From Saccoglossus kowalevskii (taxonomy: Eukaryota; Hemichordata; Enteropneusta; Harrimaniidae): DNA of 33,443 nucleotides. The translations under genes were made by a program, and so were the position numbers. Shown here piece by piece: positions 1-33,443 of the stretch (within the stretch, counting starts at the first letter, position 1; each line of letters starts with the position of its first letter). The notes below the pieces were generated by a model, which was not told the origin of the DNA, ran no database searches, and worked only from the letters and a program-made list of their open reading frames with translations. The stretch covers positions 1 to 33,443 of the forward strand of contig NW_003147620.1 of NCBI RefSeq assembly GCF_000003605.2, written 5' to 3'.

Positions 1-49
1 GGTTAGTACTTGCATGGGAGACCGGCTGGGAATACCATGTGTAGTAGGC
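1..49 (+). rRNA. 5S rRNA: 5S rRNA gene, 3' part only (window edge), ?>A
   Basis: Begins at about base 71 of the gene. The end reads GTGTAGTAGGC, with a C-to-T change in the 3' strand of helix I. The usual T5 after the gene is lost (AATATTGTTATTCC). Confidence 0.8.
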
Positions 50-147
50 TTATTAATATTGTTATTCCACCGTACATACCAACTTTTTCCCGGGGATTTT
101 TTGCCTAGCCGAAGTATTAAATTACATCCAATTCCGACGAATATCCA

Positions 148-266
148 GCCTACTGCCAAACCATTGCAGAATACACCAGTTCTCGTCCGATCAAAGAAGT
201 TAAGCTGCATCGCGCGTGGTTAGTTCTTGCATGGAAGACCGGCTGGGAATACCACCTGCAGTTGGC
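148..266 (+). rRNA. 5S rRNA: 5S rRNA gene copy 1, type A>B
   Basis: Carries the A>B marks CATCGCGCGTGG, ATGGAAGACC and ACCACCTG. Private changes are ATCAAAGAAG and the end CAGTTGGC, which puts a mismatch in helix I. Confidence 0.8.
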
Positions 267-363
267 TTATCAACATTTTTATTCCACCGTACATACCAAG
301 TTTTTTCCGGGATTTTTTGCCTTGCCGAAGCGTTAAACGACATGCAATTCTGACGAATGTTCA

Positions 364-482
364 GCCTACTGTCAAACCATTGCAGAAAACACCAGTTCTT
401 GTCCGATCACTGAAGTTAAGCAGCATCAGGCGTGGTTAGTACTTGCATGGGAGACCGGCTGGGAATACCACGTGCAGTAGGC
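364..482 (+). rRNA. 5S rRNA: 5S rRNA gene copy 2, type B>C
   Basis: B>C marks: ACTGTC at the 5' end, CTTGTCC in loop C and CATCAGG. Private: GCAGAAAACACC and AAGCAGCATC, the latter weakening helix II. Confidence 0.8.
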
Positions 483-579
483 TCATCAACATTTTTATTC
501 CACATTACATATTAACTTTAACCCAATTTTTTTTGCCTATCCGTAACATTAAATGACATCCAATTCCGACGAATATTCA

Positions 580-699
580 GTCTACTGCCAAACCATTGCA
601 GAATACACCAGTTCTCGTCGGATCGCTGAAGTTAAGCTGCATCGGGCGTGGTTAGTACTTGCATGGGAGACTGGCTGGGGAATATCTCCTGCAGTAGGC
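580..699 (+). rRNA. 5S rRNA: 5S rRNA gene copy 3, type C>D, 120 bp
   Basis: Starts GTCTAC instead of GCCTAC, has the C>D loop C mark TCGGATC, then CGCTG. An extra G in CTGGGG makes the copy 120 bp. The same 5' marks recur in the copy at 26738. Confidence 0.75.
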
Positions 700-796
700 T
701 TATCAACATTTTTTATTCCGACGTACATACTAACATTTTCTCGAGATTTGTTACCTAGCCGAAGTTTTAAATTACATCCAATTCCGACGATATTCA

Positions 797-915
797 GCCT
801 ACTGCTAAGCCAATGCTGAATACACCAGTTCTCGTCCGATCACTGAAGTTAATCTGCATCAGGCATGGTTAGTACTTACATGGGAGACCGGCTGGGAATA
901 CCACCAGCAGTAGGC
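797..915 (+). rRNA. 5S rRNA: 5S rRNA gene copy 4, type D>E
   Basis: D>E marks: GCTAAGCCAATGCTG in loop A and helix II, AATCTGCATCAGGCATGG, and TTACATGGG in box C. ACCACCAG near the end is shared only with 20796. The following spacer has no early T run. Confidence 0.75.
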
Positions 916-1012
916 TTATCAACATTAATATTCCACCGTACATACAAACTTTTTTCCGGGATTTGTTGCCTAGTCGAAGTATTAAATTACATCCAATTTC
1001 GACGAATATTCA

Positions 1013-1131
1013 GCCTACTGCCAAACCATTGTAGAATACACCAGTTCTCGTCCGAACACAGAAGTTAAGCTGCATCGGGCGTGGTTAGTACTTGCATGGG
1101 AGACCTGCTGGGAATACCACGAGCAGTAGGC
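1013..1131 (+). rRNA. 5S rRNA: 5S rRNA gene copy 5, type E>F
   Basis: E>F marks: GTAGAATAC, CCGAACACAG, GACCTGCTGG and ACGAGCAG. No indel. Confidence 0.8.
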
Positions 1132-1228
1132 TTATCAACATTTTTATTCCACTGTACATACAAACTTTTTCCCGGGATTTGTGGCCTAGCCGAAGTATTA
1201 AATTACATCCAATTCCGACGAACATTCA

Positions 1229-1347
1229 GCCTACTGCCAAACCATTATATAATACACCAGTTCTTGTCAGATCACAGAAGTTAAGATGCATCGGGCGTGG
1301 TTAGTACTTGCATGGGAGACCTGCTGGGAATACGACATGCAGTAGGC
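1229..1347 (+). rRNA. 5S rRNA: 5S rRNA gene copy 6, type F>B
   Basis: F>B marks: CTTGTCAGATCACAG and AAGATGCATC. Private: ATTATATAATAC in the helix II strand and TACGACATG. Confidence 0.8.
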
Positions 1348-1444
1348 GTATCAACATTTTTATTCCACCGTACATACCAACTTTTTCCCGGGATGTTTTG
1401 CTATGCCGAAGCCTTAAACGACATGCAATTCCGACGAATATTCA

Positions 1445-1563
1445 GCCTACTGTCAAACCATTGCAGAACACACCAGTTCTCGTCCGATCACTGAAGTTGA
1501 GGCGCATCGGGCGTGGTTAGTTCTTGCACGGGAGACCGGCTGGGAATACCACGTTCAGTCGGC
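1445..1563 (+). rRNA. 5S rRNA: 5S rRNA gene copy 7, type B>G
   Basis: B>G marks: AAGGCGCATCGGG, TTCTTGCACGGG and the end GTTCAGTCGGC, which leaves one U/C mismatch in helix I. Confidence 0.8.
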
Positions 1564-1660
1564 TCATCAACATTTTTATTCCGCATTACATACTAACTTT
1601 TTCCCATGATTTTTTGCCTAGACGAAGCATTAAATGACATACAAGTCGGACGAATAATCA

Positions 1661-1779
1661 GCCAACAGCCAAACCATTGCAGAATACACCAGTTCTCGTC
1701 CGATCACTGTAGTTAAGCTGCATCGGGCGTGGTTAGTACTTGCATGGCAGACCGGCTGGGAATACCACGTCCATTAGGC
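1661..1779 (+). rRNA. 5S rRNA: 5S rRNA gene copy 8, type G>A
   Basis: Starts GCCAACAGCC and ends CCATTAGGC, so helix I has several mismatches. Other G>A marks: CACTGTAGTT and ATGGCAGACC. Confidence 0.75.
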
Positions 1780-1877
1780 TCATCAACATTTTTATTCCAC
1801 CGTACATACTAACTTTTTCCCCGTGATTTTTTGCCTAGCCGAAGTATTAAATTACATCCAATTCCAACGAATATCCA

Positions 1878-1996
1878 GCCTACTGCCAAACCATTGCAGA
1901 ATACACCAGTTCTCGTCCGATCACAGAAGTTAAGATGCATCGGGCGTGGTTAGTACTTGCATGGGAGACCTGTTGGGAATACCACATGCATTAGGC
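1878..1996 (+). rRNA. 5S rRNA: 5S rRNA gene copy 9, type A>B (second form)
   Basis: Differs from the CGCGCG form of A>B: has ATCACAGAAG, AAGATGCATC, GACCTG and ACATGCATTAGG. This form follows G>A copies. Private: CTGTTGGG. Confidence 0.8.
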
Positions 1997-2093
1997 TTAT
2001 CATCATTTTTATTCCACCGTACATACCAACTTTTTCCCGGGATTTTTTGCCTTGCCGAAGCGTTAAACGACATGCAATTCTGACGAATAGTCA

Positions 2094-2212
2094 GCCTACT
2101 GTCAAACCATTGCAGAACACACCAGTTCTCGTCCGATCACTGAAGTTAATCTGCATCGGGCGTGGTTAGTACTTGCATGGCAGACCAGCTGGGAATACTA
2201 CGTGCATTAGAC
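2094..2212 (+). rRNA. 5S rRNA: 5S rRNA gene copy 10, type B>A
   Basis: 5' part of B>G kind and 3' part of G>A kind (ATGGCAGACC, GCATTAG). It reads ACTACGTG and ends TTAGAC, so the last helix I pairs are broken. Confidence 0.75.
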
Positions 2213-2309
2213 TCATCAACATTTTTATTCCACCGTACATACTAACTTTTTCCCGGGATTTTTTGCCTAGCCGAAGTATTAAATTACATCCAATTCCGAC
2301 GAATATCCA

Positions 2310-2428
2310 GCCTACTGCCAAACCATTGCAGAATACACCAGTTCTCGTCCGATCACTGAAGTTAATCTGCATCGCGCGTGGTTAGAACTTGCATGGAAGA
2401 CCGGCTGGGAATACCATGAGCAGTAGGC
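2310..2428 (+). rRNA. 5S rRNA: 5S rRNA gene copy 11, type A>A
   Basis: Two A spacers in a row. The gene has AATCTGCATCGCGCG, TTAGAACTTG, ATGGAAGACC and ACCATGAG. Confidence 0.8.
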
Positions 2429-2525
2429 TTATCAACATTTTTATTCCACCGTACATACCAACTTTTTCCCGGGATTTTTTGCCTCGCCGAAGTATTAAAT
2501 TACATCCAATTCCGACGAATATCCA

Positions 2526-2644
2526 GCCTACTGCCAAACCATTGCAGAATACACCAGTTCTCGTCCGATCACTGAAGTTAAGCTGCATCGCGCGTGGTTA
2601 GTACATGCATGGAAGACCGGCTGGGAATACCACCTGCAGTAGGC
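2526..2644 (+). rRNA. 5S rRNA: 5S rRNA gene copy 12, type A>B
   Basis: CGCGCG form of A>B with AGTACATGCATGG, a mark shared with the copy at 29765. Confidence 0.8.
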
Positions 2645-2741
2645 TTATCAACATTTTTATTCCACCGTACATACCAACTTTTTCCCGGGATTTTTTGCCT
2701 TGCCGAAGCGTTAAACGACATGCAATTCTGACGAATATCCA

Positions 2742-2860
2742 GCCTACTGTCAAACCATTGCAGAACACACCAGTTCTTGTCCGATCACTGAAGTTAAGCT
2801 GCATCAGGCGTGGTTAGTACTTGCATGGGAGACTGGCTGGGAATACCACGTGCAGTAGGC
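2742..2860 (+). rRNA. 5S rRNA: 5S rRNA gene copy 13, type B>C
   Basis: Standard B>C copy with CTTGTCC, CATCAGG, GACTGGCTGG and ACCACGTG. Reads the same as the copies at 3606, 6637 and 14854. Confidence 0.85.
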
Positions 2861-2958
2861 TCATCAACATTTTTATTCCACATTACATATTAACTTTAAC
2901 CCAATTTTTTTTTGCCTAGCCGTAGCATTAAATGACATCCAATTCCGACGAATATTCA

Positions 2959-3077
2959 GCCTACTGCCAAACCATTGCAGAATACACGAGTTCTCGTCGG
3001 ATCACTGAAGTTAAGCTGCATCGGGCGTGGTTAGTACTTGCTTGGGAGACCGGCTGGGAATACCACCTGCAGTAGGC
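2959..3077 (+). rRNA. 5S rRNA: 5S rRNA gene copy 14, type C>D
   Basis: Loop C TCGGATC and ACCACCTG mark C>D. Private: ATACACGAG. Shares CTTGCTTGGGAG with 20473, 30200, 31064 and 32358. Confidence 0.8.
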
Positions 3078-3173
3078 TTATCAAATTTTTATTCCACCGT
3101 ACATACTAACATATCCCGGGATTTGTTTGCCTAGCCGAAGTATTAAATTACATCCCATTCCGACAAATATTCA

Positions 3174-3293
3174 GCCTACTGCTAAGCCAATGCTGAATAC
3201 ACCAGTTCTCGTCCGATTCACTGAAGTTAAGCTGCATCGCGCGTGTTTAGTACTTGCATGGAAGACCGGCTGGGAATACCATGTGCAGTAGGC
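3174..3293 (+). rRNA. 5S rRNA: 5S rRNA gene copy 15, type D>A, 120 bp
   Basis: D-type 5' part (GCTAAGCCAATGCTG) joined to a CGCGCG, GGAAGACC, ACCATGTG 3' part. One extra T in GATTCACTG and GCGTGTTTAG damage the internal region. Confidence 0.7.
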
Positions 3294-3389
3294 TTATCAC
3301 ATTTTTATTCCACCGTACATACTAAGTTTTTTCCGGGATTTTTTGGCTAGCCGAAGTATTAAATTACATCCAAATCCGACGAATATCCA

Positions 3390-3508
3390 GCCTACTGCCA
3401 AACCATTGCAGAATACACCAGTTCTCGTCCGATCACTGAAGTTAAGCTGCATCGCGCGTGGTTAGAACTTGCATGGAAGACCGGCTGGGAATACCACCTG
3501 CAGTAGGC
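3390..3508 (+). rRNA. 5S rRNA: 5S rRNA gene copy 16, type A>B
   Basis: CGCGCG form with TTAGAACTTG, GGAAGACC and ACCACCTG. No indel. Confidence 0.8.
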
Positions 3509-3605
3509 TTATCAACATTTTTATTCCACCGTACATACTAACTTTTTCCCGGGATTTTTTGCCTTGCAGAAGCGTTAAACGACATGCAATTCTGACGAAT
3601 ATTCA

Positions 3606-3724
3606 GCCTACTGTCAAACCATTGCAGAACACACCAGTTCTTGTCCGATCACTGAAGTTAAGCTGCATCAGGCGTGGTTAGTACTTGCATGGGAGACTGG
3701 CTGGGAATACCACGTGCAGTAGGC
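3606..3724 (+). rRNA. 5S rRNA: 5S rRNA gene copy 17, type B>C
   Basis: Standard B>C sequence. Followed by the longest class C T run. Confidence 0.85.
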
Positions 3725-3768
3725 TCATCAACATTTTTATTCCACATTACATATTAACTTTAACCCAA

Positions 3769-3780
3769 TTTTTTTTTTTT
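3769..3780 (+). repeat. Longest poly-T tract of a class C spacer (T12)
   Basis: Class C spacers carry a T run after AACCCAA. Its length is 8 to 12 in intact cases, and it is broken by G or C in others (near 4205, 10479, 19555 and 26039). It could act as a second, fail-safe Pol III terminator, and it varies like a mononucleotide microsatellite. Confidence 0.6.
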
Positions 3781-3825
3781 GCCTAGCCGTAGCATTAAAT
3801 GACATCCAATTCCGACGAATATTCA

Positions 3826-3944
3826 GCCTACTGCCAAACCATTGCAGAATACACCAGTTATCGTCGGATCACTGAAGTTAAGCTGCATTGGGCGTGGTTA
3901 GTACTTGCATGGGAGACCTGCTGGGAATACCACATGCAGTAGGC
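3826..3944 (+). rRNA. 5S rRNA: 5S rRNA gene copy 18, type C>B
   Basis: C>D-like 5' part (TCGGATC) and F>B-like 3' part (GACCTGCTGG, ACATGCAG), with GCATTGGGCG between. Looks like a recombinant that skips D, E and F. Confidence 0.75.
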
Positions 3945-4040
3945 TTATCAACATTTTTATTCCACCGTACATACCAACTTTTCCCGGGATTTTTTGCCTT
4001 GCCGAAGCCTTAAACGACATGCAATTCTGACGAATGTTCA

Positions 4041-4158
4041 GCTACTGTCAAACCATTGCAGAACACACCCGTTCTTGTCCGATCACTGAAGTTAAGCTGC
4101 ATCAGGCGTGGTTAGTACTTGCATGGGAGACTGGCTGGGAATACCACGTGCAGTAGGT
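4041..4158 (+). rRNA. 5S rRNA: 5S rRNA gene copy 19, type B>C, 118 bp
   Basis: One C lost at the start (GCTACTG), and the last base is T (GTAGGT). Both ends of helix I are affected. CACACCCGTTC is private. Confidence 0.7.
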
Positions 4159-4257
4159 TTATCATCATTTTTATTCCACATTACATATTAACTTTAACCC
4201 AAATTTTCTTTTGCCTATCCGTAGCATTAAATGACATCCAATTCCGACGAATATTCA

Positions 4258-4376
4258 GCCTACTGCCAAACCATTGCAGAATACACCAGTTCTCTTCGGA
4301 TCACTGAAGTTAAGCTGCATCGGGCGTGGTTAGTACTTGCATGGGAGACCGGCTGGAAATACCACCTGCAGTAGGC
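4258..4376 (+). rRNA. 5S rRNA: 5S rRNA gene copy 20, type C>D
   Basis: Has CTCTTCGGATC in loop C and GGCTGGAAATAC. The following spacer has only T3 at the terminator place. Confidence 0.75.
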
Positions 4377-4472
4377 TTATCAACATTTATATTTCACCGT
4401 ACATACTAACATTTCCCGGGATTTGTTGCCTAGCCGAAGTATTAAATTACATCCAATTCCGACGAGTATTCA

Positions 4473-4591
4473 GCCTACTGCCAAACCATTGTAGAATACA
4501 CCAGTTCTCGTCCGAACACAGAAGTTAAGCTGCATTGGGCGTGGTTAGTACTTGCATGGGAGACCTGCTGGGAATACCACATGCAGTAGGC
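4473..4591 (+). rRNA. 5S rRNA: 5S rRNA gene copy 21, type D>B
   Basis: E>F-like 5' part (GTAGAATAC, CGAACACAG), then GCATTGGGC, GACCTG and ACATGCAG. Skips E and F. Confidence 0.8.
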
Positions 4592-4688
4592 TTATCAACA
4601 TTTTTATTCCACCGTACATACCAACTTTTTCCCGGGATTTTTTGCCTTGCCGAAGCCTTAAACGACATGCAATTCTGACGAATATTCA

Positions 4689-4808
4689 GCCATACTGTCA
4701 AACCATTGCAGAACACACCAGTTCTTGTCCGATCACTGAAGTTAAGCTGCATCAGGCGTGGTTAGTACTTACATGGGAGACTGGCTGGGAATACCACGTG
4801 CAGTAGGC
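4689..4808 (+). rRNA. 5S rRNA: 5S rRNA gene copy 22, type B>C, 120 bp
   Basis: An inserted A gives GCCATACTGTC in helix I. TTACATGGG replaces TTGCATGGG in box C. Confidence 0.7.
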
Positions 4809-4907
4809 TCATCAACATTTTTATTCCACATTACATATTAACTTTAACCCAATTTTTTTTTTGCCTAGCCGTAGCATTAAATGACATCCAATTCCAACGA
4901 ATATTCA

Positions 4908-5026
4908 GCCTACTGCCAAACCATTGCAGAATGCACCAGTTCTCGTCGGATCACTGAAGTTAAGCTGCATCGGGCGTGGTTAGTACTTGCATGGGAGACC
5001 GGCTGGGAATACCACATGCAGTAGGC
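4908..5026 (+). rRNA. 5S rRNA: 5S rRNA gene copy 23, type C>B
   Basis: Intact helix I ends, with ATGCACC and loop C TCGGATC. Otherwise close to consensus, with ACCGGCTGG and ACATGCAG. Confidence 0.8.
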
Positions 5027-5123
5027 TTATCAACATTTTTATTCCACCGTACATACCAACTTTTTCCCGGGATTTTTTGCCTTGCCGAAGCGTTAAACGA
5101 CATGCAATTCTGACGAATATTCA

Positions 5124-5242
5124 GCCTACTGTCAAACCATTGCAGAACACACCAGTTCTCGTCCGATCACTGAAGTTAAGCTGCATCGGGCGTGGTTAGT
5201 ACTTGCATGCGAGACCGGCTGGGAATACCATGTGCAGTAGGC
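5124..5242 (+). rRNA. 5S rRNA: 5S rRNA gene copy 24, type B>A, near consensus
   Basis: Keeps CTCGTCCGATCACTG, CTGCATCGGG and ACCGGCTGG. Departures are ACTGTC, GAACACACC, ATGCGAGACC and ACCATGTG, the last only a wobble pair in helix V. Confidence 0.85.
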
Positions 5243-5251
5243 TTATTAACA

Positions 5252-5256
5252 TTTTT
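5252..5256 (+). terminator. Pol III terminator T5 (example)
   Basis: Five T residues lie at +10 to +14 after the gene end at 5242. RNA polymerase III stops at runs of four or more T on the non-template strand. The same T5 follows most copies of classes A, B, C, F and G. Class E spacers lack it. Confidence 0.65.
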
Positions 5257-5307
5257 ATTCCACCGTACATACCAACTTTTTCCCGGGATTTTTTGCCTAG
5301 CCGAAGT

Positions 5308-5316
5308 ATTAAATTA
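5308..5316 (+). promoter_or_regulatory. TATA-like element upstream of a 5S copy (example of class A form)
   Basis: ATTAAATTA lies at -32 to -24 from the gene start at 5340. Insect 5S genes are known to use an upstream TATA-like box near -30. Spacers of classes A, D, E and F keep this form. Class B has GTTAAACGA, and classes C and G have ATTAAATGA, at the same place. Confidence 0.5.
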
Positions 5317-5339
5317 CATCCAATTCCGACGAATATCCA

Positions 5340-5458
5340 GCCTACTGCCAAACCAGTGCAGAATATACCAGTTCTTGTCCGATCACTGAAGTTAAGCTGC
5401 ATCGCGCGTGGATAGTACTTGCATGGAAGACCGGCTGGGAATATCACCTGCAGTAGGC
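5340..5458 (+). rRNA. 5S rRNA: 5S rRNA gene copy 25, type A>B
   Basis: CGCGCG form with several private changes: CAGTGCAG, AATATACC, CTTGTCC, GGATAGTAC and ATATCACCTG. Confidence 0.8.
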
Positions 5459-5555
5459 TTATCAACATTTTTATTCCACCGTACATACCAACTTTTTCTC
5501 GGGATTTTTTGCCTTGCCGAAGCGTTAAACGACATACAATTCTGACGAATATTCA

Positions 5556-5674
5556 GCCTACTGTCAAACCATTGCAGAACACACCAGTTCTTGTCCGATC
5601 ACTGAAATTAAGCTGCATCAGGCGTGGTTAGTACTTGCATGGGAGACTGGCTGGGAATACCACGAGCAGTAGGC
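5556..5674 (+). rRNA. 5S rRNA: 5S rRNA gene copy 26, type B>F
   Basis: B>C-like gene through GACTGGCTGG, then ACGAGCAG and an F spacer: a switch near the gene end. GAAATTAAGC is private. Confidence 0.8.
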
Positions 5675-5772
5675 TTATCAACATTTTTATTCCACTGTAC
5701 ATACAAACTTTTTCCCGGGATTTGTTGCCTAGCCGATGTATTAAAATTACATCCAATTCCGACGAATATTCA

Positions 5773-5891
5773 GCCTACTGCCAAACCATTGTAGAATACA
5801 CCTGTTCTTGTCAGATCACAGAAGTTAAGATGCATCGGGCGTGGTTAGTACTTGCATGGGAGACCTGCTGGGAATACCACATGCAGAAGGC
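5773..5891 (+). rRNA. 5S rRNA: 5S rRNA gene copy 27, type F>B
   Basis: F>B marks with CACCTGTTCTTGTCAG. Ends GCAGAAGGC, a mismatch in helix I. Confidence 0.8.
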
Positions 5892-5988
5892 TTATCAACA
5901 TTTTTATTCCACCGTACATACCAACTTTTTCCCTGGATTTTTTGCCTTGCCGAAGCGTTAAACGACATGCAATTCTGACGAATAGTCA

Positions 5989-6107
5989 AGTTACTGTCAA
6001 ACCATTGCAGAACACACCAGTTCTCGTCTGATCACTGAAGTTAAGCTGCATCGGGCGTGGTTAGTTCTTGCACGGGAGACCGGCTGGGAATACCACGTTC
6101 AGTCGGC
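5989..6107 (+). rRNA. 5S rRNA: 5S rRNA gene copy 28, type B>G, altered 5' end
   Basis: The start reads AGTTACTG in place of GCCTACTG: three substitutions in helix I with no matching change at the 3' end. Also GTCTGATC. Confidence 0.65.
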
Positions 6108-6204
6108 TCATCAACATTTTTATTCCACATTACATACTATGTTTTTCCCATGATTTTTTGCCTAGACGAAGCATTAAATGACATACAAGTCGGACGAATA
6201 ATCA

Positions 6205-6323
6205 GCCAACAGCCAAACCATTGCAGAATACACCAGTTCTCGTCCGATCACTGTAGTTAAGCTGCATCGGGCGCGGTTAGTACTTGCATGGCAGACCGGC
6301 TGGGAATACCACATACATTAGGC
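6205..6323 (+). rRNA. 5S rRNA: 5S rRNA gene copy 29, type G>A
   Basis: GCCAACAGCC start. Private: GGGCGCGGTT and ACATACATTAGG. Confidence 0.75.
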
Positions 6324-6420
6324 TCATCAACATTTTTATTCCACCGTACATACTAACTTTTTTCCGGGATTTTTTGCCTAGCCGAAGTATTAAATTACAT
6401 CCAATTCCGACGAATATCCA

Positions 6421-6539
6421 GCCTACTGCCAAACCATTGCAGAATACACCAGTTCTCGTCCGATCACTGAAGTTAAGCTGCATCGCGCGTGGTTAGAACT
6501 TGCATGGAAGACCGGCTGGGCATACCACCTGCAGTAGGC
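6421..6539 (+). rRNA. 5S rRNA: 5S rRNA gene copy 30, type A>B
   Basis: CGCGCG form with TTAGAACTTG and CTGGGCATACC. Confidence 0.8.
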
Positions 6540-6636
6540 TTATCAACATTTTTATTCCACCGTACATACCAACTTTTTCCCGGGATTTTTTGCCTTGCAG
6601 AAGCGTTAAACGACATGCAATTCTGACGAATATTCA

Positions 6637-6755
6637 GCCTACTGTCAAACCATTGCAGAACACACCAGTTCTTGTCCGATCACTGAAGTTAAGCTGCATC
6701 AGGCGTGGTTAGTACTTGCATGGGAGACTGGCTGGGAATACCACGTGCAGTAGGC
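6637..6755 (+). rRNA. 5S rRNA: 5S rRNA gene copy 31, type B>C
   Basis: Standard B>C sequence. Confidence 0.85.
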
Positions 6756-6855
6756 TCATCAACATTTTTATTCCACATTACATATTAACTTTAACCCAAT
6801 TTTTTTTTTTGCCTAGCCGTAGCAATTAATGACATCCAATTCCGACGAATATTCA

Positions 6856-6974
6856 GCCTACTGCCAAACCATTGCAGAATACACCAGTTCTCGTCGGATC
6901 ACTGAAGTTAAGCTGCATTGGGCGTGGTTAGTACTTGCATGGGAGACCTGCTGGGAATACCACGTCCATTAGGC
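6856..6974 (+). rRNA. 5S rRNA: 5S rRNA gene copy 32, type C>A
   Basis: TCGGATC and GCATTGGGCG, as in the copy at 3826, but ends CGTCCATTAGGC like a G>A copy. Recombinant join inside the 3' third. Confidence 0.75.
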
Positions 6975-7071
6975 TCATCAACATTTTTATTCCACCGTAC
7001 ATACTAACTTTTTCCCGGGATTTTTTGCCTAGCCGAAGTATTAAATTACATCCAATTCCAACGAATATCCA

Positions 7072-7191
7072 GCCTACTGCCAAACCATTGCAGAATACAC
7101 CAGTTCTCGTCCGATCACAGAAGTTAAGATGCATCGGGCGTGGTTAGTACGTGCATGGGAGACCTGCTGGGGAATACCACATGCATTAGGC
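7072..7191 (+). rRNA. 5S rRNA: 5S rRNA gene copy 33, type A>B (second form), 120 bp
   Basis: AAGATGCATC form with AGTACGTGC and an extra G in GCTGGGG. Confidence 0.75.
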
Positions 7192-14420: not shown

Positions 14421-14539
14421 GCCTACTGTCAAACCATTGCAGAACACACCAGTTCTCGTCCGATCACTGAAGTTAAGCTGCATCGGGCGTGGTTAGTACT
14501 TGCATGGGAGACCGGCTGGGAATACCTTGTGCAGTAGGC
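14421..14539 (+). rRNA. 5S rRNA: 5S rRNA gene copy 67, type B>A, closest to consensus
   Basis: 5S rRNA is the small structural RNA of the large ribosomal subunit. This copy keeps CTCGTCCGATCACTG, AAGTTAAGCTGCATCGGG, TTAGTACTTGCATGGG and ACCGGCTGGG. Helix I pairs GCCTACTG with CAGTAGGC. It departs only at ACTGTC, GAACACACC and CCTTGTG. A T5 follows at the usual place. The upstream element is the degenerate class B form, and the spacer there has private changes (AGAAAAGTCA). Confidence 0.88.
14470..14517 (+). promoter_or_regulatory. Internal control region of a near-consensus 5S copy (box A, IE, box C)
   Basis: Known 5S genes are driven from inside the gene: TFIIIA binds box A, the intermediate element and box C, then TFIIIC and TFIIIB recruit RNA polymerase III. 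In this copy box A lies near 14470-14484 (AAGTTAAGCTGC), the intermediate element near 14487-14492 and box C near 14500-14517 (TTGCATGGGAGACC). All other copies have the same region with class-specific changes. Confidence 0.7.
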
Positions 14540-14637
14540 TTATTAACATTTTTATTCCACCGTACATACCAACTTTTTCCCGGGATTTTTTGCCTAGCCG
14601 AAGTATTAAATTACATCCAATTCCGACGAATTATCCA

Positions 14638-26207: not shown

Positions 26208-26305
26208 TTATTAATATTTGTATTCCACCGTACATACCAACTTTTTCCCGGGGATTTTTTGCCTAGCCGAAGTATTAAATTACATCCAATTCCGACGAAT
26301 ATCCA

Positions 26306-26424
26306 GCCTACTGCCAAACCATTGCAGAATACACCAGTTCTCGTCCGATCAAAGAAGTTAAGCTGCATCGCGCGTGGTTAGTTCTTGCATGGAAGACCGG
26401 CTGGGAATACCACCTGCAGTTGGC
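26306..26424 (+). rRNA. 5S rRNA: 5S rRNA gene copy 122, type A>B
   Basis: ATCAAAGAAG and the end CAGTTGGC, as in the copy at 148. Confidence 0.8.
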
Positions 26425-26521
26425 TTATCAACATTTTTATTCCACCGTACATACCAAGTTTTTTCCGGGATTTTTTGCCTTGCCGAAGCGTTAAACGACA
26501 TGCAATTCTGACGAATGTTCA

Positions 26522-26640
26522 GCCTACTGTCAAACCATTGCAGAAAACACCAGTTCTTGTCCGATCACTGAAGTTAAGCAGCATCAGGCGTGGTTAGTAC
26601 TTGCATGGGAGACCGGCTGGGAATACCACGTGCAGTAGGC
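26522..26640 (+). rRNA. 5S rRNA: 5S rRNA gene copy 123, type B>C
   Basis: GCAGAAAACACC and AAGCAGCATC, as in the copy at 364. Confidence 0.8.
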
Positions 26641-26737
26641 TCATCAACATTTTTATTCCACATTACATATTAACTTTAACCCAATTTTTTTTGCCTAGCC
26701 GTAGCATTAAATGACATCCAATTCCGACGAATATTCA

Positions 26738-26856
26738 GTCTACTGCCAAACCATTGCAGAATACACCAGTTCTCGTCGGATCGCTGAAGTTAAGCTGCAT
26801 CGGGCGTGGTTAGTACTTGCATGGGAGACCGGCTGGGAATACCTCCTGCAGTAGGC
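26738..26856 (+). rRNA. 5S rRNA: 5S rRNA gene copy 124, type C>D
   Basis: GTCTAC, TCGGATCGCTG and CCTCCTG, as in the copy at 580 but without its extra G. Confidence 0.8.
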
Positions 26857-26952
26857 TTATCAACATTTTTATTCCAACGTACATACTAACATTTCTCGGG
26901 ATTTGTTACCTAGCCGAAGTTTTAAATTACATCCAATTCCGACGAATATTCA

Positions 26953-27070
26953 GCCTACTGCTAAGCCAACGCTGAATACACCAGTTCTCGTCCGATCACT
27001 GAAGTTAATCTGCATCAGGCATGGTTAGTACTTACATGGGAGACCGGCTGGAATACCACGAGCAGTAGGG
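26953..27070 (+). rRNA. 5S rRNA: 5S rRNA gene copy 125, type D>E, 118 bp
   Basis: CCAACGCTG. One G lost in GGCTGGAATACC. The last base is G (GTAGGG). Confidence 0.7.
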
Positions 27071-27167
27071 TTATCAACATTATTATTCCACCGTACATAC
27101 AAACTTTTTCCCGGGATTTGTTTCCTAGCCGAAGTATTAAATTACATCCAATTCCGACGAATATTCA

Positions 27168-27286
27168 GCCTACTTCCAAACCATTGTAGAATACACCAGT
27201 TCTCGTCCGATCACAGAAGTTAAGCTGCATCGGGCGTGGTTAGTACTTGCATGGGAAACCTGCTGGGAATACCACGAGCAGTAGGC
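27168..27286 (+). rRNA. 5S rRNA: 5S rRNA gene copy 126, type E>F
   Basis: CCTACTTCC and ATGGGAAACC, as in the copy at 9231. Confidence 0.8.
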
Positions 27287-27383
27287 TTAACAACATTTTT
27301 ATTCCACTGTACATACAAACTTTTTCCCGGGATTTGTTGCCTAGCCGAAGTATTAAATTACATCCAATTCCGACGAATATTCA

Positions 27384-27506
27384 GCCTACTGTCAAACCAT
27401 TGCAGAACACACCAGTTCTCGTCCGATCACTGAAGTTAAGGCGCATCGGGCGTGGTTAGTTCTTTCTTGCACGGGAGACCGGCTGGGAATACCACGTTCA
27501 GTCGGC
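27384..27506 (+). rRNA. 5S rRNA: 5S rRNA gene copy 127, type F>G, 123 bp
   Basis: A 4-bp duplication gives TTAGTTCTTTCTTGCACG, pushing box C away from box A. B>G-type gene directly after F. Confidence 0.7.
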
Positions 27507-27603
27507 TCATCAACATTTTTATTCCACATTACATACTAACTTTTTCCCATGATTTTTTGCCTAGACGAAGCATTAAATGACATACAAGTCGGACGAATAA
27601 TCA

Positions 27604-27721
27604 GCCAACAGCCAAACCATTGCAGAATACACCAGTTCTCATCCGATCACTGTAGTTAAGCTGCATCGGGCGTGGTTAGTACTTGCATGGCAGACCGGCT
27701 GGGAGAACCACGTGCATTAGC
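27604..27721 (+). rRNA. 5S rRNA: 5S rRNA gene copy 128, type G>A, 118 bp
   Basis: CTCATCCG, GGGAGAACC, and one G lost at the end (CATTAGC). Confidence 0.7.
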
Positions 27722-27818
27722 TCATCAACATTTTTATTCCACCGTACATACTAACTTTTTCCCGGGGTTTTTTGCCTAGCCGAAGTATTAAATTACATCC
27801 AATTCCAACGAATATCCA

Positions 27819-27937
27819 GCCTACTGCCAAACCATTGCAGAATACACCAGTTCTCGTCCGATCACTGAAGTTAAGCTGCATCGCGCGTGGTTAGAACTTG
27901 CATGGAAGACCGGCTGGGAATACCATGTGCAGTAGGC
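27819..27937 (+). rRNA. 5S rRNA: 5S rRNA gene copy 129, type A>A'
   Basis: CGCGCG, TTAGAACTTG, ACCATGTG. No indel. Confidence 0.8.
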
Positions 27938-28034
27938 TTATCAACATTTTTATTCCACCGTACATACCAACTTTTTCCCGGGATTTTTTGCCTTGCCGAA
28001 GCGTTAAATTACATCCAATTCCGACGAATATCCA

Positions 28035-28153
28035 GCCTACTGCCAAACCATTGTAGAATACACCAGTTCTCGTCCGATCACAGAAGTTAAGATGCATCGG
28101 GCGTGGTTAGTACTTGCATGGGAGACCTGCTGGGAATACCGCATGCATTAGGC
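28035..28153 (+). rRNA. 5S rRNA: 5S rRNA gene copy 130, type A'>B (second form)
   Basis: GTAGAAT, AAGATG and ACCGCATGCATT. Confidence 0.78.
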
Positions 28154-28250
28154 TTATCAACATTTTTATTCCACCGTACATACCAACTTCTTCCCGGGAT
28201 TTTTTGCCTTGCCGACGCATTAAACGACATGCAATTCTGACGAATATTCA

Positions 28251-28369
28251 GCCTACTGTCAAACCATTGCAGAACACACCAGTTCTTGTCCGATCACTGA
28301 AGTTAAGCAGCATCAGGCGTGGTTAGTACTTGCATGGGAGACCGGCTGGGAATACCACGTGCACTAGGC
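28251..28369 (+). rRNA. 5S rRNA: 5S rRNA gene copy 131, type B>C
   Basis: AAGCAGCATCAGG. Ends GCACTAGGC, a helix I mismatch. Confidence 0.78.
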
Positions 28370-28470
28370 TCATCAACATTTTTATTCCACATTACATATT
28401 AACTTTAACCCAAGTTTTTTTTTTTGCCTAGCCATAGCATTAAATGACATCCAATTCCGACGAATATTCA

Positions 28471-28589
28471 GCCTACTGCCAAACCATTGCAGAATACACC
28501 AGTTCTCGTCGGATCACTGAAGTTAAGCAGCATCGGGCGTGGTTAGTACTTGCATGGGAGACCGGCTGGGTATACCACCTGCAGTAGGC
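28471..28589 (+). rRNA. 5S rRNA: 5S rRNA gene copy 132, type C>D
   Basis: AAGCAGCATCGGG and GGGTATACC. Followed by T3 only. Confidence 0.78.
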
Positions 28590-28685
28590 TTATCAACATT
28601 TATATTTCACCGTACATACTAACATTTCCCGGGATTTGTTGCCTAGCCGAAGTATTAAATTACATCCAATTACGACGAATATTCA

Positions 28686-28804
28686 GCCTACTGCTAAGCC
28701 AATGCTGAATACACCAGTTCTCGTCCGATCACAGAAGTTAAGCTGCATCGGGCGTGGTTAGTACTTGCATGGCAGATCTGCTGGGAATACCACGAGCAGT
28801 AGGC
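28686..28804 (+). rRNA. 5S rRNA: 5S rRNA gene copy 133, type D>F
   Basis: D-type 5' part (GCTAAGCCAATGCTG) with E>F-type 3' part. ATGGCAGATCTGC is private. Confidence 0.76.
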
Positions 28805-28901
28805 TTATCAACATTTTTATTCCACTGTACATACAAACTTTTTCCCGGGATTTGTTGCCTAGCCGCAGTATTAAATTACATCCAATTCCGACGAATATTC
28901 A

Positions 28902-29020
28902 GCCTACTGCCAAACCATTGTAGAATACACCAGTTCTTGTCAGATCACTGAAGTTAGGATGCATCGGGCGTGGTTAGTACTTGCATGGGAGACCGGCTGG
29001 GAATACCACCTGCAGTAGGC
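28902..29020 (+). rRNA. 5S rRNA: 5S rRNA gene copy 134, type F>D
   Basis: GTAGAAT, CTTGTCAGATCACTG and TTAGGATG, then C>D-like ACCACCTG. Confidence 0.77.
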
Positions 29021-29116
29021 TTATCAACATTTTAATTCCACCGTACATACTAACATTTCCCGGGATTTGTTGCCTAGCCGAAGTATTAAATTACATCCAA
29101 TTCCGACGAATATTCA

Positions 29117-29235
29117 GCCTACTGCTAAGCCAATGCTGAATACACCAGTTCTCGTCCGATCACTGAAGTTAATCTGCATCAGGCATGGTTAGTACTTACA
29201 TGGGAGACCGGCTGGGAATACCACGAGCAGTAGGC
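29117..29235 (+). rRNA. 5S rRNA: 5S rRNA gene copy 135, type D>E
   Basis: Standard D>E copy. The spacer has ATTATCATTCC. Confidence 0.75.
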
Positions 29236-29332
29236 TTATCAACATTATCATTCCACCGTACATACAAACTTTTTCCCGGGATTTGTTGCCTAGCCGAAGT
29301 ATTAAATTACATCCAATTCCGACGAATATTCA

Positions 29333-29451
29333 GCCTACTGCCAAACCATTATAGAAAACACCAGTTCTTGTCAGATCACAGAAGTTAAGATGCATCGGGC
29401 GTGGTTAGTACTTGCATGGGAGACCTGCTGGGAATACCACATGCGGTAGGC
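29333..29451 (+). rRNA. 5S rRNA: 5S rRNA gene copy 136, type E>B
   Basis: ATTATAGAAAACACC, CTTGTCAG, AAGATG and ATGCGGTAGGC. Confidence 0.78.
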
Positions 29452-29548
29452 TTATCAACATTTTTATTCCACCGTACATACCAACTTTTTCCCGGGATTT
29501 TTTGCTATGCCGAAGCCTTAAACGACATGCAATTCTGACGAATATTCA

Positions 29549-29667
29549 GCCTACTGACAAACCATTGCAGAACACACCAGTTTTCGTCCGATCACTGAAG
29601 TTAAGCTGCATCGGGCGTGGTTAGTACTTGCATGGGAGACCGGCTGGGAATACCATGTGCAGTAGGC
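29549..29667 (+). rRNA. 5S rRNA: 5S rRNA gene copy 137, type B>A, near consensus
   Basis: CTGCATCGGG, TTGCATGGGAGACC and ACCGGCTGGG intact. Departures: ACTGACAAACC, GAACACACC, GTTTTCGTCC and ACCATGTG. Confidence 0.85.
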
Positions 29668-29764
29668 TTATTAACATTTTTATTACACCGTACATACCAA
29701 CTTTTTCCCGGGATTTTTTGCCTAGCCGAAGTATTAAATTACATCCAATTCCGACGAATATCCA

Positions 29765-29883
29765 GCCTACTGCCAAACCATTGCAGAATACACCAGTTCT
29801 CGTCCGATCATTGAAGTTAAGCTGCATCGCGCGTGGTTAGTACATGCATGGAAGACCGGCTGGGAATACCACCTGCAGTAGGC
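29765..29883 (+). rRNA. 5S rRNA: 5S rRNA gene copy 138, type A>B
   Basis: GATCATTG and AGTACATGCATGG. Confidence 0.8.
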
Positions 29884-29980
29884 TTATCAACATTTTTATT
29901 CCACCGTACATACCAACTTTTTCCCGGGATTTTTTGCCTTGCCGAAGCGTTAAACGACATGCAATTCTGACGAATATTCA

Positions 29981-30099
29981 GCCTACTGTCAAAGCATTGC
30001 AGAACACACCAGTTCTTGTCCGATCACTGAAGTTAAGCTGCATCAGGCGTGGTTAGTACTTGCATGGGAGACTGGCTGGGAATACCACGTGCAGTAGGC
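29981..30099 (+). rRNA. 5S rRNA: 5S rRNA gene copy 139, type B>C
   Basis: B>C with AAAGCATTGC. Confidence 0.8.
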
Positions 30100-30199
30100 T
30101 CATCAACATTTTTATTCCACATTACATATTAACTTTAACCCAATTTTTTTTTTTGCCTAGCCGTAGCATTAAATGACATCCAATTCCGACGAATATTCA

Positions 30200-30318
30200 G
30201 CCTACTGCCAAACCATTGCAGAATACACCAGTTCTCGTCGGATCACTGAAGTTAAGCTGCATCGGGCGTGGTTAGTACTTGCTTGGGAGACCGGCTGGGA
30301 ATACCACCTGCAGTAGGC
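30200..30318 (+). rRNA. 5S rRNA: 5S rRNA gene copy 140, type C>D
   Basis: TCGGATC and CTTGCTTGGGAG, with ATCAAATTTTTATTCC after the gene, as at 2959. Confidence 0.8.
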
Positions 30319-30413
30319 TTATCAAATTTTTATTCCACCGTACATACTAACATTTCCCGGGATTTGTTGCCTAGCCGAAGTATTAAATTACATCCAATTC
30401 CGACGAATATTCA

Positions 30414-30532
30414 GCCTACTGCTAAGCCAATGCTGAATACACCAGTTCTCGTCCGATCACTGAAGTTAAGCTGCATCGCGCGTGGTTAGAACTTGCATGG
30501 AAGACCGGCTGGGAATACCATGTGCAGTTGGC
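30414..30532 (+). rRNA. 5S rRNA: 5S rRNA gene copy 141, type D>A'
   Basis: GCTAAGCCAATGCTG 5' part, CGCGCG 3' part. Ends CAGTTGGC. Confidence 0.77.
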
Positions 30533-30629
30533 TTATCAACATTTTTATTCCACCGTACATACCAACTTTTTCCCGGAATTTTTTGCCTTGCCGAAACGTT
30601 AAATTACACCCAATTCCGACGAATATCCA

Positions 30630-30748
30630 GCCTACTGCCAAACCATTGCAGAATACACCAGTTCTCGTCCGATCACTGAAGTTAAGCTGCATCGCGCGTG
30701 GTTAGTACGTGCATGGAAGACCGGCTGGGAATACCACCTGCAGTAGGC
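30630..30748 (+). rRNA. 5S rRNA: 5S rRNA gene copy 142, type A'>B
   Basis: CGCGCG form with AGTACGTGCATGG. Confidence 0.8.
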
Positions 30749-30845
30749 TTAACAACATTTTTATTCCACCGTACACACCAACTTTTTCCCGGGATTTTTT
30801 GCCTTGCCGAAGCGTTAAACGACATGCAATTCTGACGAATATTCA

Positions 30846-30964
30846 GCCTACTGTCAAACCATTGCAGAACACACCAGTTCTTTTCCGATCACTGAAGTTA
30901 AGCTGCATCAGGCGTGGTTAGTACTTGCATGGGAGACTGGCTGGGAATACCACGTGCAGTAGGC
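30846..30964 (+). rRNA. 5S rRNA: 5S rRNA gene copy 143, type B>C
   Basis: B>C with CTTTTCCG in loop C. Confidence 0.8.
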
Positions 30965-31063
30965 TCATCAACATTTTTATTCCACATTACATATTAACTT
31001 TAACCCAATTTTTTTTTTGCCTAGCCATAGCATTAAATGACATCCAATTCCGACGAATGTTCA

Positions 31064-31182
31064 GCCTACTGCCAAACCATTGCAGAATACACCAGTTCTC
31101 GTCGGATCACTGAAGTTAAGCTGCATCGGGCGTGGTTAGTACTTGCTTGGGAGACCGGCTGGGAATACCACCTGCAGTAGGC
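31064..31182 (+). rRNA. 5S rRNA: 5S rRNA gene copy 144, type C>D
   Basis: TCGGATC and CTTGCTTGGGAG. Confidence 0.8.
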
Positions 31183-31277
31183 TTATCAAATTTTTATTCC
31201 ACCGTACATACTAACATTTCTCGGGATTTGTTGCCTAGCCGAAGTATTAAATTACATCCAATTCCGACGAATATTCA

Positions 31278-31396
31278 GCCTACTGCCAAACCATTGTAGA
31301 ATACACCAGTTCTCGTCCGAACACAGAAGTTAAGCTGCATCGGGCGTGGTTAGTACTTGCATGGGAGACCTGCTGGGAATACCACGAGCAGTAGGC
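31278..31396 (+). rRNA. 5S rRNA: 5S rRNA gene copy 145, type D>F
   Basis: E>F-type gene (GTAGAAT, CGAACACAG) directly after D, so E is missing. Confidence 0.8.
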
Positions 31397-31492
31397 TTAT
31401 CAACATTTTTATTCCACTGTACATACAAAATTTTCCCGGGATTTGTTGCCTAGCCGAAGTATTAAATTACATCCAATTCCGACGAACATTCA

Positions 31493-31611
31493 GCCTACTG
31501 CCAAACCATTATAGAATACACCAGTTCTTGTCAGATCACAGAAGTTAAGATGCATCTGGCGTGGTTAGTACTTGCATGGGAGACCTGCTTGGAATACCAC
31601 ATGCAGTAGGT
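31493..31611 (+). rRNA. 5S rRNA: 5S rRNA gene copy 146, type F>B
   Basis: CATCTGGCG, CTGCTTGGAATAC and T as last base (TAGGT). Confidence 0.76.
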
Positions 31612-31708
31612 TTATCAACATTTTTATTCCACCGTACATACCAACTTTTTCCCGGGATTTTTTGCCTTGCCGAAGCGTTAAACGACATGCAATTCTGACG
31701 AATATTCA

Positions 31709-31827
31709 GCCTACTGTCAAACCATTGCAGAACACACCAGTTCTCGTCCGATCACTGAAGTTAAGGCGCATCGGGCGTGGTTAGTTCTTGCACGTGAGAC
31801 CGGCTGGGAATACCACGTTCAGTCGGC
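31709..31827 (+). rRNA. 5S rRNA: 5S rRNA gene copy 147, type B>G
   Basis: Standard B>G with GCACGTGAGACC. Confidence 0.8.
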
Positions 31828-31924
31828 TCATCAACATTTTTATTCCACATTACATACTAACTTTTTCCCATGATTTTTTGCCTAGACGAAGCATTAAATG
31901 ACATACAAGTCGGACGAATAATCA

Positions 31925-32043
31925 GCCAACAGCCAAACCATTGCAGAATACACCAGTTCTCGTCCGCTCACAGAAGTTAAGATGCATCGGGCGTGGTTAG
32001 TACTTGCATGGGAGACCTGCTGGGAATACCACATGCATTAGGC
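31925..32043 (+). rRNA. 5S rRNA: 5S rRNA gene copy 148, type G>B
   Basis: G>A-type start (GCCAACAGCC) joined to an A>B second-form 3' part (AAGATG, ACATGCATT). GTCCGCTCACAG at the join. Confidence 0.75.
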
Positions 32044-32140
32044 TTATCAACATTTTTATTCCACCGTACATACCAACTTTTTCACGGGATTTTTTGCCTT
32101 GCCGAAGCGTTAAACGACATGCAATTCTGACGAATATACA

Positions 32141-32259
32141 GCCTACTGTCAAACCATTGCAGAACACACCAGTTCTCGTCCGATCACTGAAGTTAAGCTG
32201 CATCAGGCGTGGTTAGTACTTGCATGGGAGACTGGCTGGGAATACCACGTGCAGTAGGC
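32141..32259 (+). rRNA. 5S rRNA: 5S rRNA gene copy 149, type B>C
   Basis: Keeps CTCGTCC, unlike most B>C copies. CATCAGG and GACTGG. Confidence 0.82.
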
Positions 32260-32357
32260 TCATCAACATTTTTATTCCACATTACATATTAACTTTAACC
32301 CAATTTTTTTTGCCTAGCCGTAGCATTAAATGACATCCAATTCCCGACGAATATTCA

Positions 32358-32478
32358 GCCTACTGCCAAACCATTGCAGAAATACACCAGTTCTCGTCGG
32401 ATCACTGAAGTTAAGCTGCATCGGGCGTGGTTTAGTACTTGCTTGGGAGTCCGGCTGGGAATACCACCTGCAGTAGGC
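32358..32478 (+). rRNA. 5S rRNA: 5S rRNA gene copy 150, type C>D, 121 bp
   Basis: Extra A in GCAGAAATACACC and extra T in GTGGTTTAGTAC. GGGAGTCCGG in box C. Confidence 0.68.
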
Positions 32479-32573
32479 TTATCAAATTTTTATTCCACCG
32501 TACATACTAACATTTCCCGGGATTTGTTGCCTAGCCGAAGTATTAAATTACATCCAATTCCGACGAATATTCA

Positions 32574-32692
32574 GCCTATTGCTAAGCCAATGCTGAATAC
32601 ACCAGTTCTCATCCGATCACTGAAGTTAATCTGCATCAGGCATGGTTAGTACTTACATGGGAGACCGGCTGGGAATACCACGAGCAGTAGGC
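32574..32692 (+). rRNA. 5S rRNA: 5S rRNA gene copy 151, type D>E
   Basis: Starts GCCTATTG. CTCATCCG. Confidence 0.75.
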
Positions 32693-32789
32693 TTATCAAC
32701 ATTATTATTCCACCGTACATAAAAACTTTTTCCCGGGATTTGTTACCTAGTCGAAGTATTGAATTACATCCAATTTCGACGAATATTCA

Positions 32790-32908
32790 GCCTACTGCCA
32801 AACCATTGTAGAATACACCAGTTCTCGTCCGAACACAGAAGTTAAGCTGCATCGGGCGTGGTTAGTACTTGCATGGGAGACCTGCTGGGAATACCACGAG
32901 CAGTAGGC
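32790..32908 (+). rRNA. 5S rRNA: 5S rRNA gene copy 152, type E>F
   Basis: CCGAACACAG. The upstream box reads ATTGAATTA. Confidence 0.8.
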
Positions 32909-33005
32909 TTATCAACATTTTTATTCCACTGTACATACAAAATTTTTCCCGGGATTTGTTGCCTAGCCGAAGTATTAAATTACATCCAATTCCGACGAAC
33001 ATTCA

Positions 33006-33124
33006 GCCTACTGCCAAACCATTATAGAATACACCAGTTCTTGTCAGATCACAGAAGTTAAGTTGCATCGGGCGTGGTTAGTACTTGCATGGGAGACCTG
33101 CTGGGAATACCACATGCAGTAGGG
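33006..33124 (+). rRNA. 5S rRNA: 5S rRNA gene copy 153, type F>B
   Basis: AAGTTGCATCGGG. The last base is G (GTAGGG). Confidence 0.78.
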
Positions 33125-33220
33125 TTATCAACATTTTTATTCCACCGTACATACCAACTTTTTCCCGGGTTTTTTGCCTTGCCGAAGCGTTAAACGACAT
33201 GCAATTCTGACGAATATTCA

Positions 33221-33339
33221 GCCTACTGTCAAACCATTGCAGAACACACCAGTTCTCGTCCGATCACTGAAGTTAAGGCGCATCGGGCGTGGTTAGTTCT
33301 TGCACGTGAGACCGGCTGGGAATATCACGTTCAGTCGGC
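33221..33339 (+). rRNA. 5S rRNA: 5S rRNA gene copy 154, type B>G
   Basis: GCACGTGAGACC and GGAATATCACG. Ends CAGTCGGC. Confidence 0.8.
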
Positions 33340-33436
33340 TCATCAACATTTTTATTCCACATTACATACTAACTTTTTCCCATGATTTTTTGCCTAGACG
33401 AAGCATTAAATGACATACAAGTCGGACGAATAATCA

Positions 33437-33443
33437 GCCAACA
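33437..33443 (+). rRNA. 5S rRNA: 5S rRNA gene, first 7 bases only (window edge), G>?
   Basis: GCCAACA after a G spacer, as expected for the start of a G>A copy. Confidence 0.6.

What the first reader, a model, noticed from the sequence alone, without database searches (positions are those of the whole stretch)
1..33443. Eight-unit higher-order repeat hidden inside a 5S rDNA array
Spacers sort into seven classes that follow A-B-C-D-E-F-B-G in a preferred order. By eye, 12 of 14 G spacers with a visible successor are followed by A, and 15 of 21 C spacers by D. The B class splits in two by its successor: before C the gene reads CATCAGG, before G it reads AAGGCGCATC. Such order is known for alpha satellite but is unexpected in 5S rDNA, where units are usually homogenised one by one.
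Basis: seen in the sequence. Interest (0 to 1): 0.72.

Follow-up and report, generated by a model that had tools for sequence, protein, structure and literature searches.

The report
Scrambled nine-unit satellite from 5S genes
A long tandem array is built from decayed copies of a ribosomal 5S gene whose nine kinds of copy still follow one preferred cyclic order, probably the worn remains of a higher-order repeat of the sort known from human centromere DNA.

Summary
The order is real; the eight-unit period is not. The window, a whole contig of an unnamed 572 Mb genome, holds 153 full ~216-bp units, each with a decayed 5S-like gene. They fall into nine classes that follow the cycle A-E-F-H-I-B-G-C-D. 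Each half of the array gives the same cycle; 118 of 152 junctions obey it (shuffle maximum 49). Identity does not peak at lag 8 (z 0.33) or 9 (z 0.83); order fades within a few units. Breaks look like unequal homologous exchange: chimeric units, breakpoints mostly in the gene, jumps between classes sharing a spacer; 18 junctions stay unexplained. Stretches of two other contigs keep the cycle (37 of 42 and 26 of 40 junctions); two more have other classes with orders of their own. It is not the genome's working rDNA, found elsewhere with mostly 1.1-1.6 kb units, but a 5S-derived satellite: its consensus differs from the working gene only by pair-preserving changes at paired sites, while the classes diverged without that constraint. 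Known kinds, new combination. Location, species and expression are unknown.

The parts
1..33443 (+). whole window: tandem array of about 216-bp units, each a 120-bp 5S-like gene plus a spacer of about 96 bp; 153 full units cut from gene start to gene start, 148 to 33220, partial units at both ends
   Evidence: Rfam 5S_rRNA, 154 matches above the gathering score
22631..25007 (+). longest run in canonical order, 11 units, A-E-F-H-I-B-G-C-D-A-E (its first unit is painted as a D/A chimera)
148..1877 (+). canonical run of 8 units, I-B-G-C-D-A-E-F
1878..2093 (+). example of the recurrent H/A chimeric unit; the same H to A switch is in units 9, 33, 46, 66, 74 and 83
14421..14637 (+). example of the recurrent E/G/H chimeric unit (also units 24, 118, 137); the query of the genome search, 98% matches in contigs C1639 and C242

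Best explanation
The window is a piece of a satellite DNA family that arose from a once-functional 5S rRNA gene variant plus a short spacer. A stretch of nine diverged units was amplified as a block, giving a nine-unit higher-order repeat. Out-of-register homologous exchange between unlike units, mostly inside the 5S-like part or in spacers shared by two classes, then deleted and duplicated parts of the block, leaving local order without a period. Shown here: nine classes, one cyclic order, its loss with distance, chimeric units and shared spacers at many of the breaks, the same order in two other contigs, no excess of pair-preserving changes among the class consensuses. Inferred: that a regular nine-unit array once existed, that exchange rather than another route scrambled it, and that the copies are no longer working genes.
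For: Cycle found in each half separately, 59 of 76 and 58 of 75 junctions predicted in the other half (the classes themselves were defined on the whole window). 118 of 152 junctions canonical under a painting with no preferred order, shuffle maximum 49. 34 chimeric units: left junction canonical in 25 of 34, right in 25 of 34, both in 20. 22 of 29 distinct switches wholly in the gene, 15.1 expected, P .0065. 16 of 34 non-canonical junctions fit a switch in a shared spacer. Order fixed from the window holds in L032 (37 of 42) and L034 (26 of 40), shuffle maxima 14 and 12. Simulated exchange from a perfect nine-unit array keeps all nine classes and leaves lag-9 sharing near chance. Pair-preserving changes between working gene and satellite consensus, 8 of 8 paired sites; class consensuses 8 of 33, 7.7 expected.
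Against: No regular nine-unit array was seen in the window or in the four other stretches read, so the intact repeat is inferred. 18 of 152 junctions remain unexplained. The simulation leaves all boundaries canonical (1.0, observed .78) and gives .35 chimeric units (observed 34 of 153), so it is not a full match. P values treat copies of one event as independent. Units against their class consensus keep pairs somewhat more often than expected (93 of 237, 70.2 expected), which hints at some leftover constraint or at exchange between classes.
Confidence: 0.77

Rival explanations
1. There never was a regular nine-unit array. Short blocks of neighbouring units were copied together many times, so that neighbourhood was inherited and preferred successors arose without any period ever existing.
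For: Order is first-order only; second-order context adds nothing beyond a first-order chain. Shared blocks are at most 6 units long and lie at scattered lags. No intact array was found.
Against: The nine preferred successors close into a single cycle through all nine classes, the same in both halves and in two other contigs. 3 windows of nine units are in full order. A decayed cycle predicts the same first-order statistics, so these do not separate the two.
Confidence: 0.14
2. These are working 5S genes of a special type (for example oocyte-type), kept in large numbers and in order.
For: Every unit keeps a recognisable full-length 5S; the overall consensus folds as a 5S at -47.1 kcal/mol, the working gene at -50.5; some copies in another contig reach 102 bits.
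Against: Class consensuses fold at -35.0 to -44.3 and keep 33 to 37 of 38 pairs; 8 of 33 paired changes keep pairing, 7.7 expected; within classes gene and spacer vary alike.0435 and .0462. Between classes the gene varies less than the spacer (.1015 and .1394), which is weak evidence the other way.
Confidence: 0.05
3. The scrambled order is an assembly artefact: classes were joined wrongly when a collapsed repeat was assembled.
For: The contig is nothing but repeat, with no unique flank, and such arrays are easily misassembled. The sequencing method is not known to me.
Against: 34 odd junctions and 45 internal switches in 153 units, one per two units or so, far closer than a long read is long. 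The same chimeric unit recurs in the window and at 98% identity in two other contigs. Indels against class consensus are few (40 cells in 153 units; rare insertion columns, held by under 8% of units, had been dropped).
Confidence: 0.04

Closest known systems
PcP190 satellite DNA of frogs (PMC11675491, abstract and introduction passages)
   Same: 5S-derived satellite with a unit of about 190 bp: a 120-bp region like the 5S gene plus a short variable region
   Different: no ordered unit classes are mentioned in the passages seen (the words 'higher-order' and 'HOR' were not found in that text); the genome here was not shown to be a frog's and no kinship of sequence was tested
Alpha satellite with decayed class order (SF3 pentamers, mixed domains with hybrid monomers; PMC4496801, passages)
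   Same: unit classes with a preferred cyclic order of which only remnants are visible, and hybrid units proposed as the result of heavy deletion
   Different: unrelated sequence; the founder here is a 5S gene; the cycle has nine members
Amplified 5S rDNA of pikes, Esox (PMC5437419, passages and section 19)
   Same: very many 5S units with short spacers (95-116 bp in 94% of units) in long tandem blocks; arrays differ in spacer variants
   Different: judged potentially functional and homogeneous by its authors; 'higher-order' there means block layout, not a cyclic order of unit classes
5S rDNA cluster of C. elegans (PMC8961926, passages)
   Different: long units (976 bp canonical) that differ by a few bases; a map of one cluster, no cyclic order in the passages seen

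Membership tests
5S rDNA-derived satellite DNA | tandem unit contains a region homologous to the 5S gene | tested here: met
   154 Rfam matches; consensus gene 91.7% identical to the genome's working 5S gene
5S rDNA-derived satellite DNA | distinct from the working rDNA, with decay of the gene | tested here: met
   separate 5S arrays elsewhere; no excess of pair-keeping changes among class consensuses
5S rDNA-derived satellite DNA | abundant and heterochromatic | tested here: inconclusive
   353 matches as a lower bound, listed ones in 16 other contigs; chromatin state and total amount unknown
Functional 5S rDNA | copies under constraint for the 5S fold | tested here: not met
   class consensuses: 8 of 33 paired changes keep pairing, 7.7 expected; units against class consensus 93 of 237, 70.2 expected, a mild excess
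Functional 5S rDNA | transcribed by RNA polymerase III | not testable with these tools
   no expression data
Higher-order repeat (alpha-satellite sense) | unlike units within the block, in a fixed order | tested here: met
   nine classes, 118 of 152 junctions canonical, replicated in L032 and L034
Higher-order repeat (alpha-satellite sense) | identity peaks at the multi-unit period, blocks nearly identical | tested here: not met
   lag 8 z 0.33, lag 9 z 0.83; same-class identity .951 both near and far; filed only as a decayed remnant

The most novel reading that the evidence does not exclude
One retired 5S gene variant founded a satellite family whose separate arrays each grew their own set of unit classes and their own order, as human chromosomes did with alpha satellite, and the arrays now lose that order by exchange inside the 5S-like part; the family may serve as centromere DNA.
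Probability: 0.35. Interest if true: 0.68.

Novelty: new variant of a known kind. Interest (0 to 1): 0.5.

Why it matters
Higher-order repeats are best known from alpha satellite. Here the founder is a gene with a known fold, so the likely state of the founder unit, the end of constraint (pair-preserving changes before, random ones after) and the breakpoints of later exchange can be read from sequence. That makes it a good case for measuring how ordered satellites form and decay, and it shows that not every 5S-like array is homogenised unit by unit.

Tried and rejected
Rejected: an eight-unit period; large recent block duplications in the window (no megablast match of at least 432 bp at 96% identity; runs of units at 95% or more are at most 6 long). 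Considered and held unlikely: working or oocyte-type 5S. The 18,217 first-look candidates were not used as a copy number, since only 47 were scored and loose candidates may be chance.

Led nowhere: plasmid search with one unit (no match); phage search with the working 5S gene (no match, of no real use here); paper search for strings of the working 5S gene (0 papers); a COX1 family search meant to place the species (not completed). First 10 kb of contigs C3790-C3799 and C3802-C3809: no match to the satellite in what could be read (some of these stretches came back masked).

Data handling: one search found 154 gene anchors; the 153 units between them were used. Alignment columns held by under 8% of units were dropped from then on. 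In one search, 9 of 153 units in clusters smaller than 5 were left out of the transition table; later calls assign every unit to a class. The number of classes depends on the cut: 9 of at least 5 units at .07, 6 at .09. In other loci only pieces of 190-245 bp were used: 43 of 45 in L032, 41 of 43 in L034, 45 of 45 in L033, 45 of 46 in L035, so a few junctions there bridge a dropped piece.
Full report
WHAT IS THERE. It is one uninterrupted tandem array (1-33439, period 216, 154.7 copies) with 154 5S_rRNA matches above the gathering score, best 96.6 bits; the 150 listed are all on the + strand and cover the whole model. I cut 153 full units at the gene start; mean pairwise identity is .884.

CLASSES AND ORDER. 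Average-linkage clustering at the .07 cut gives nine classes of at least five units, 144 of 153 units. Every unit was then assigned to its nearest class consensus. The commonest successors form one closed cycle, A-E-F-H-I-B-G-C-D and back to A; 99 of 152 unit-level steps follow it. Painting each unit base by base with the nine consensuses, with no preference for any order at the junctions, raises this to 118 of 152; shuffled units give a best-successor sum of 36.7 on average and 49 at most in 2000. Each half alone yields the same nine successors and predicts 59 of 76 and 58 of 75 junctions of the other half (classes had been defined on the whole window). In a tree of the 119 non-chimeric units eight of the nine classes are exact clades and the ninth (I) lacks one of 12 members.

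Spacer-only clustering gives seven classes. A and I have identical consensus spacers; F and H differ by 2, C and D by 2. This matching of names is my inference from the quoted gene motifs.

NO PERIOD. Identity by unit lag is flat: lag 8 .8852 (z 0.33, rank 24 of 60), lag 9 z 0.83; adjacent units are less alike than random pairs (lag 1 .8776, z -2.8). Class information is 1.717 bits at lag 1 and at shuffle level from lag 4. The share of pairs at the canonical offset falls .651.450.300.195.128.082 over lags 1-6, a little below powers of .651 plus chance. Second-order context adds nothing beyond a first-order chain. Identity within a class is .951 for pairs up to 20 units apart and for pairs more than 60 apart. 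So the array has local order without a period.

HOW ORDER WAS LOST. In the painting 34 of 153 units are chimeras of two or more classes. Their left junction is canonical in 25 of 34 and their right junction in 25 of 34, both in 20; had the starting class run on to the end of the unit, 1 of 34 right junctions would be canonical. Of 45 switches 29 are distinct; 22 of the 29 lie wholly in the gene, 15.1 expected (P .0065); the H to A switch is in six units, the E to G switch in four. Of the 34 non-canonical junctions, 16 are what a switch in a shared spacer would give (A=I, F~H, C~D): 16 of 26 eligible, binomial P 5e-9, reached by .0008 of 5000 random pairings; 18 stay unexplained. These P values treat copies as independent events and overstate. 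About 70 simulated exchanges from a perfect nine-unit array give the observed unit-level order, keep all nine classes and leave lag-9 sharing near chance; but the simulation keeps every boundary canonical (observed .78) and makes .35 of units chimeric (observed 34 of 153). Together this points to unequal homologous exchange between unlike units. That a regular array came first is inference.

OTHER ARRAYS. A genome search with one unit gave 353 matches, a lower bound (36 of 1009 candidates scored); the matches listed lie in 16 contigs, the window's not among them. L032 (C1639) and L034 (C242) hold the same classes; with the cycle fixed from the window, 37 of 42 and 26 of 40 junctions are canonical, plus 3 and 10 explained by shared spacers; shuffles reach at most 14 and 12. 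They may be parts of the same physical array as the window. L033 (C2420) and L035 (C2833) do not use these classes (median distance to the nearest class 17 and 16), and L033 shows no clear canonical excess (7 of 44, shuffle mean 5.4, maximum 11). They have classes of their own in non-random order: at the .06 cut 28 of 39 top successors in L033 (shuffle maximum 22 in 2000) and 19 of 32 in L035 (maximum 18), at .07 28 of 39 (21) and 21 of 34 (20); the L035 excess is small. At the .06 cut the two share no class, at .07 and .08 they share two. Yet the overall consensus of each differs from the window's by one base, so the arrays look like separate radiations from one founder unit.

NOT THE WORKING GENES. 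The genome has other 5S arrays, on C3485 (unit mostly about 1139 bp) and on C2212 and C3801 (mostly about 1579 bp), scoring 101-113 bits in the copies scored. In the 30 kb read for this, 14 of 16 genes are 98-100% identical to the working gene taken from L003, the other two 95.8 and 97.5%. The satellite consensus is 91.7% identical to the best of them over the gene, and no match longer than the gene was found there. Against the working gene the satellite consensus has 10 differences, one of them a gap; all 8 at paired sites keep pairing, six of them as three two-sided changes (7/113, 18/62, 31/48), so that 38 of 38 pairs stand in both (the structure is the predicted fold of the satellite consensus). 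Among class consensuses 8 of 33 paired changes keep pairing, 7.7 expected. Within classes gene and spacer vary alike (.0435 and .0462); between classes the gene varies less (.1015 and .1394). So the founder looks like a functional 5S variant, and the classes arose after constraint had ended or weakened. A mild excess of pair-keeping in units against their class consensus (93 of 237, 70.2 expected) speaks slightly the other way.

KNOWN AND NEW. 5S-derived satellites are known: PcP190 in frogs (PMC11675491, passages), with Hoplias and Plantago cases named in passages of PMC5437419 and Plantago also in PMC11202950 (passages). Remnant class order and hybrid monomers are known from alpha satellite (PMC4496801, passages). 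The pike paper (PMC5437419, passages and section 19) uses 'higher-order' for block layout. C. elegans 5S variants lie in a reproducible order (PMC8961926, passages). Four searches of open PMC text listed no paper whose title or start of abstract reports a cyclic order of unit classes in a 5S-derived satellite; most subscription papers are not held, so this is weak evidence of novelty. I rate it a new variant of a known kind.

LIMITS. Species, chromosome position, sequencing method and expression are unknown. The likeness of the working gene to animal 5S genes is recalled, not tested. The window has no flanks.

Noticed in passing
L017 (contig C3795, first 10 kb): A tandem array of U5 snRNA genes, 11 Rfam matches at about 970-bp spacing.
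   Followed up: no
L013, L015, L016, L018-L022 (contigs between C3791 and C3802, first 10 kb each): A run of neighbouring contigs made partly or wholly of other short tandem repeats, best periods 126/42, 62, 51, 277/92, 136, 137, 39 and 58 bp.
   Followed up: no
L001-L011 (C3485; C2212 and C3801): Two kinds of working-type 5S array in one genome, units of about 1139 and 1579 bp, with genes nearly alike and spacers that look unrelated in the stretches read; the spacers were not aligned.
   Followed up: partly
L033 (C2420) and L035 (C2833): Arrays of the same satellite with other unit classes and orders of their own, but an overall consensus one base from the window's.
   Followed up: partly
window, class consensuses: The classes are themselves mosaics: A has the gene nearest D (5 differences) but the spacer of I (0); H has the gene nearest I (3) but the spacer nearest F (2).
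   Followed up: partly
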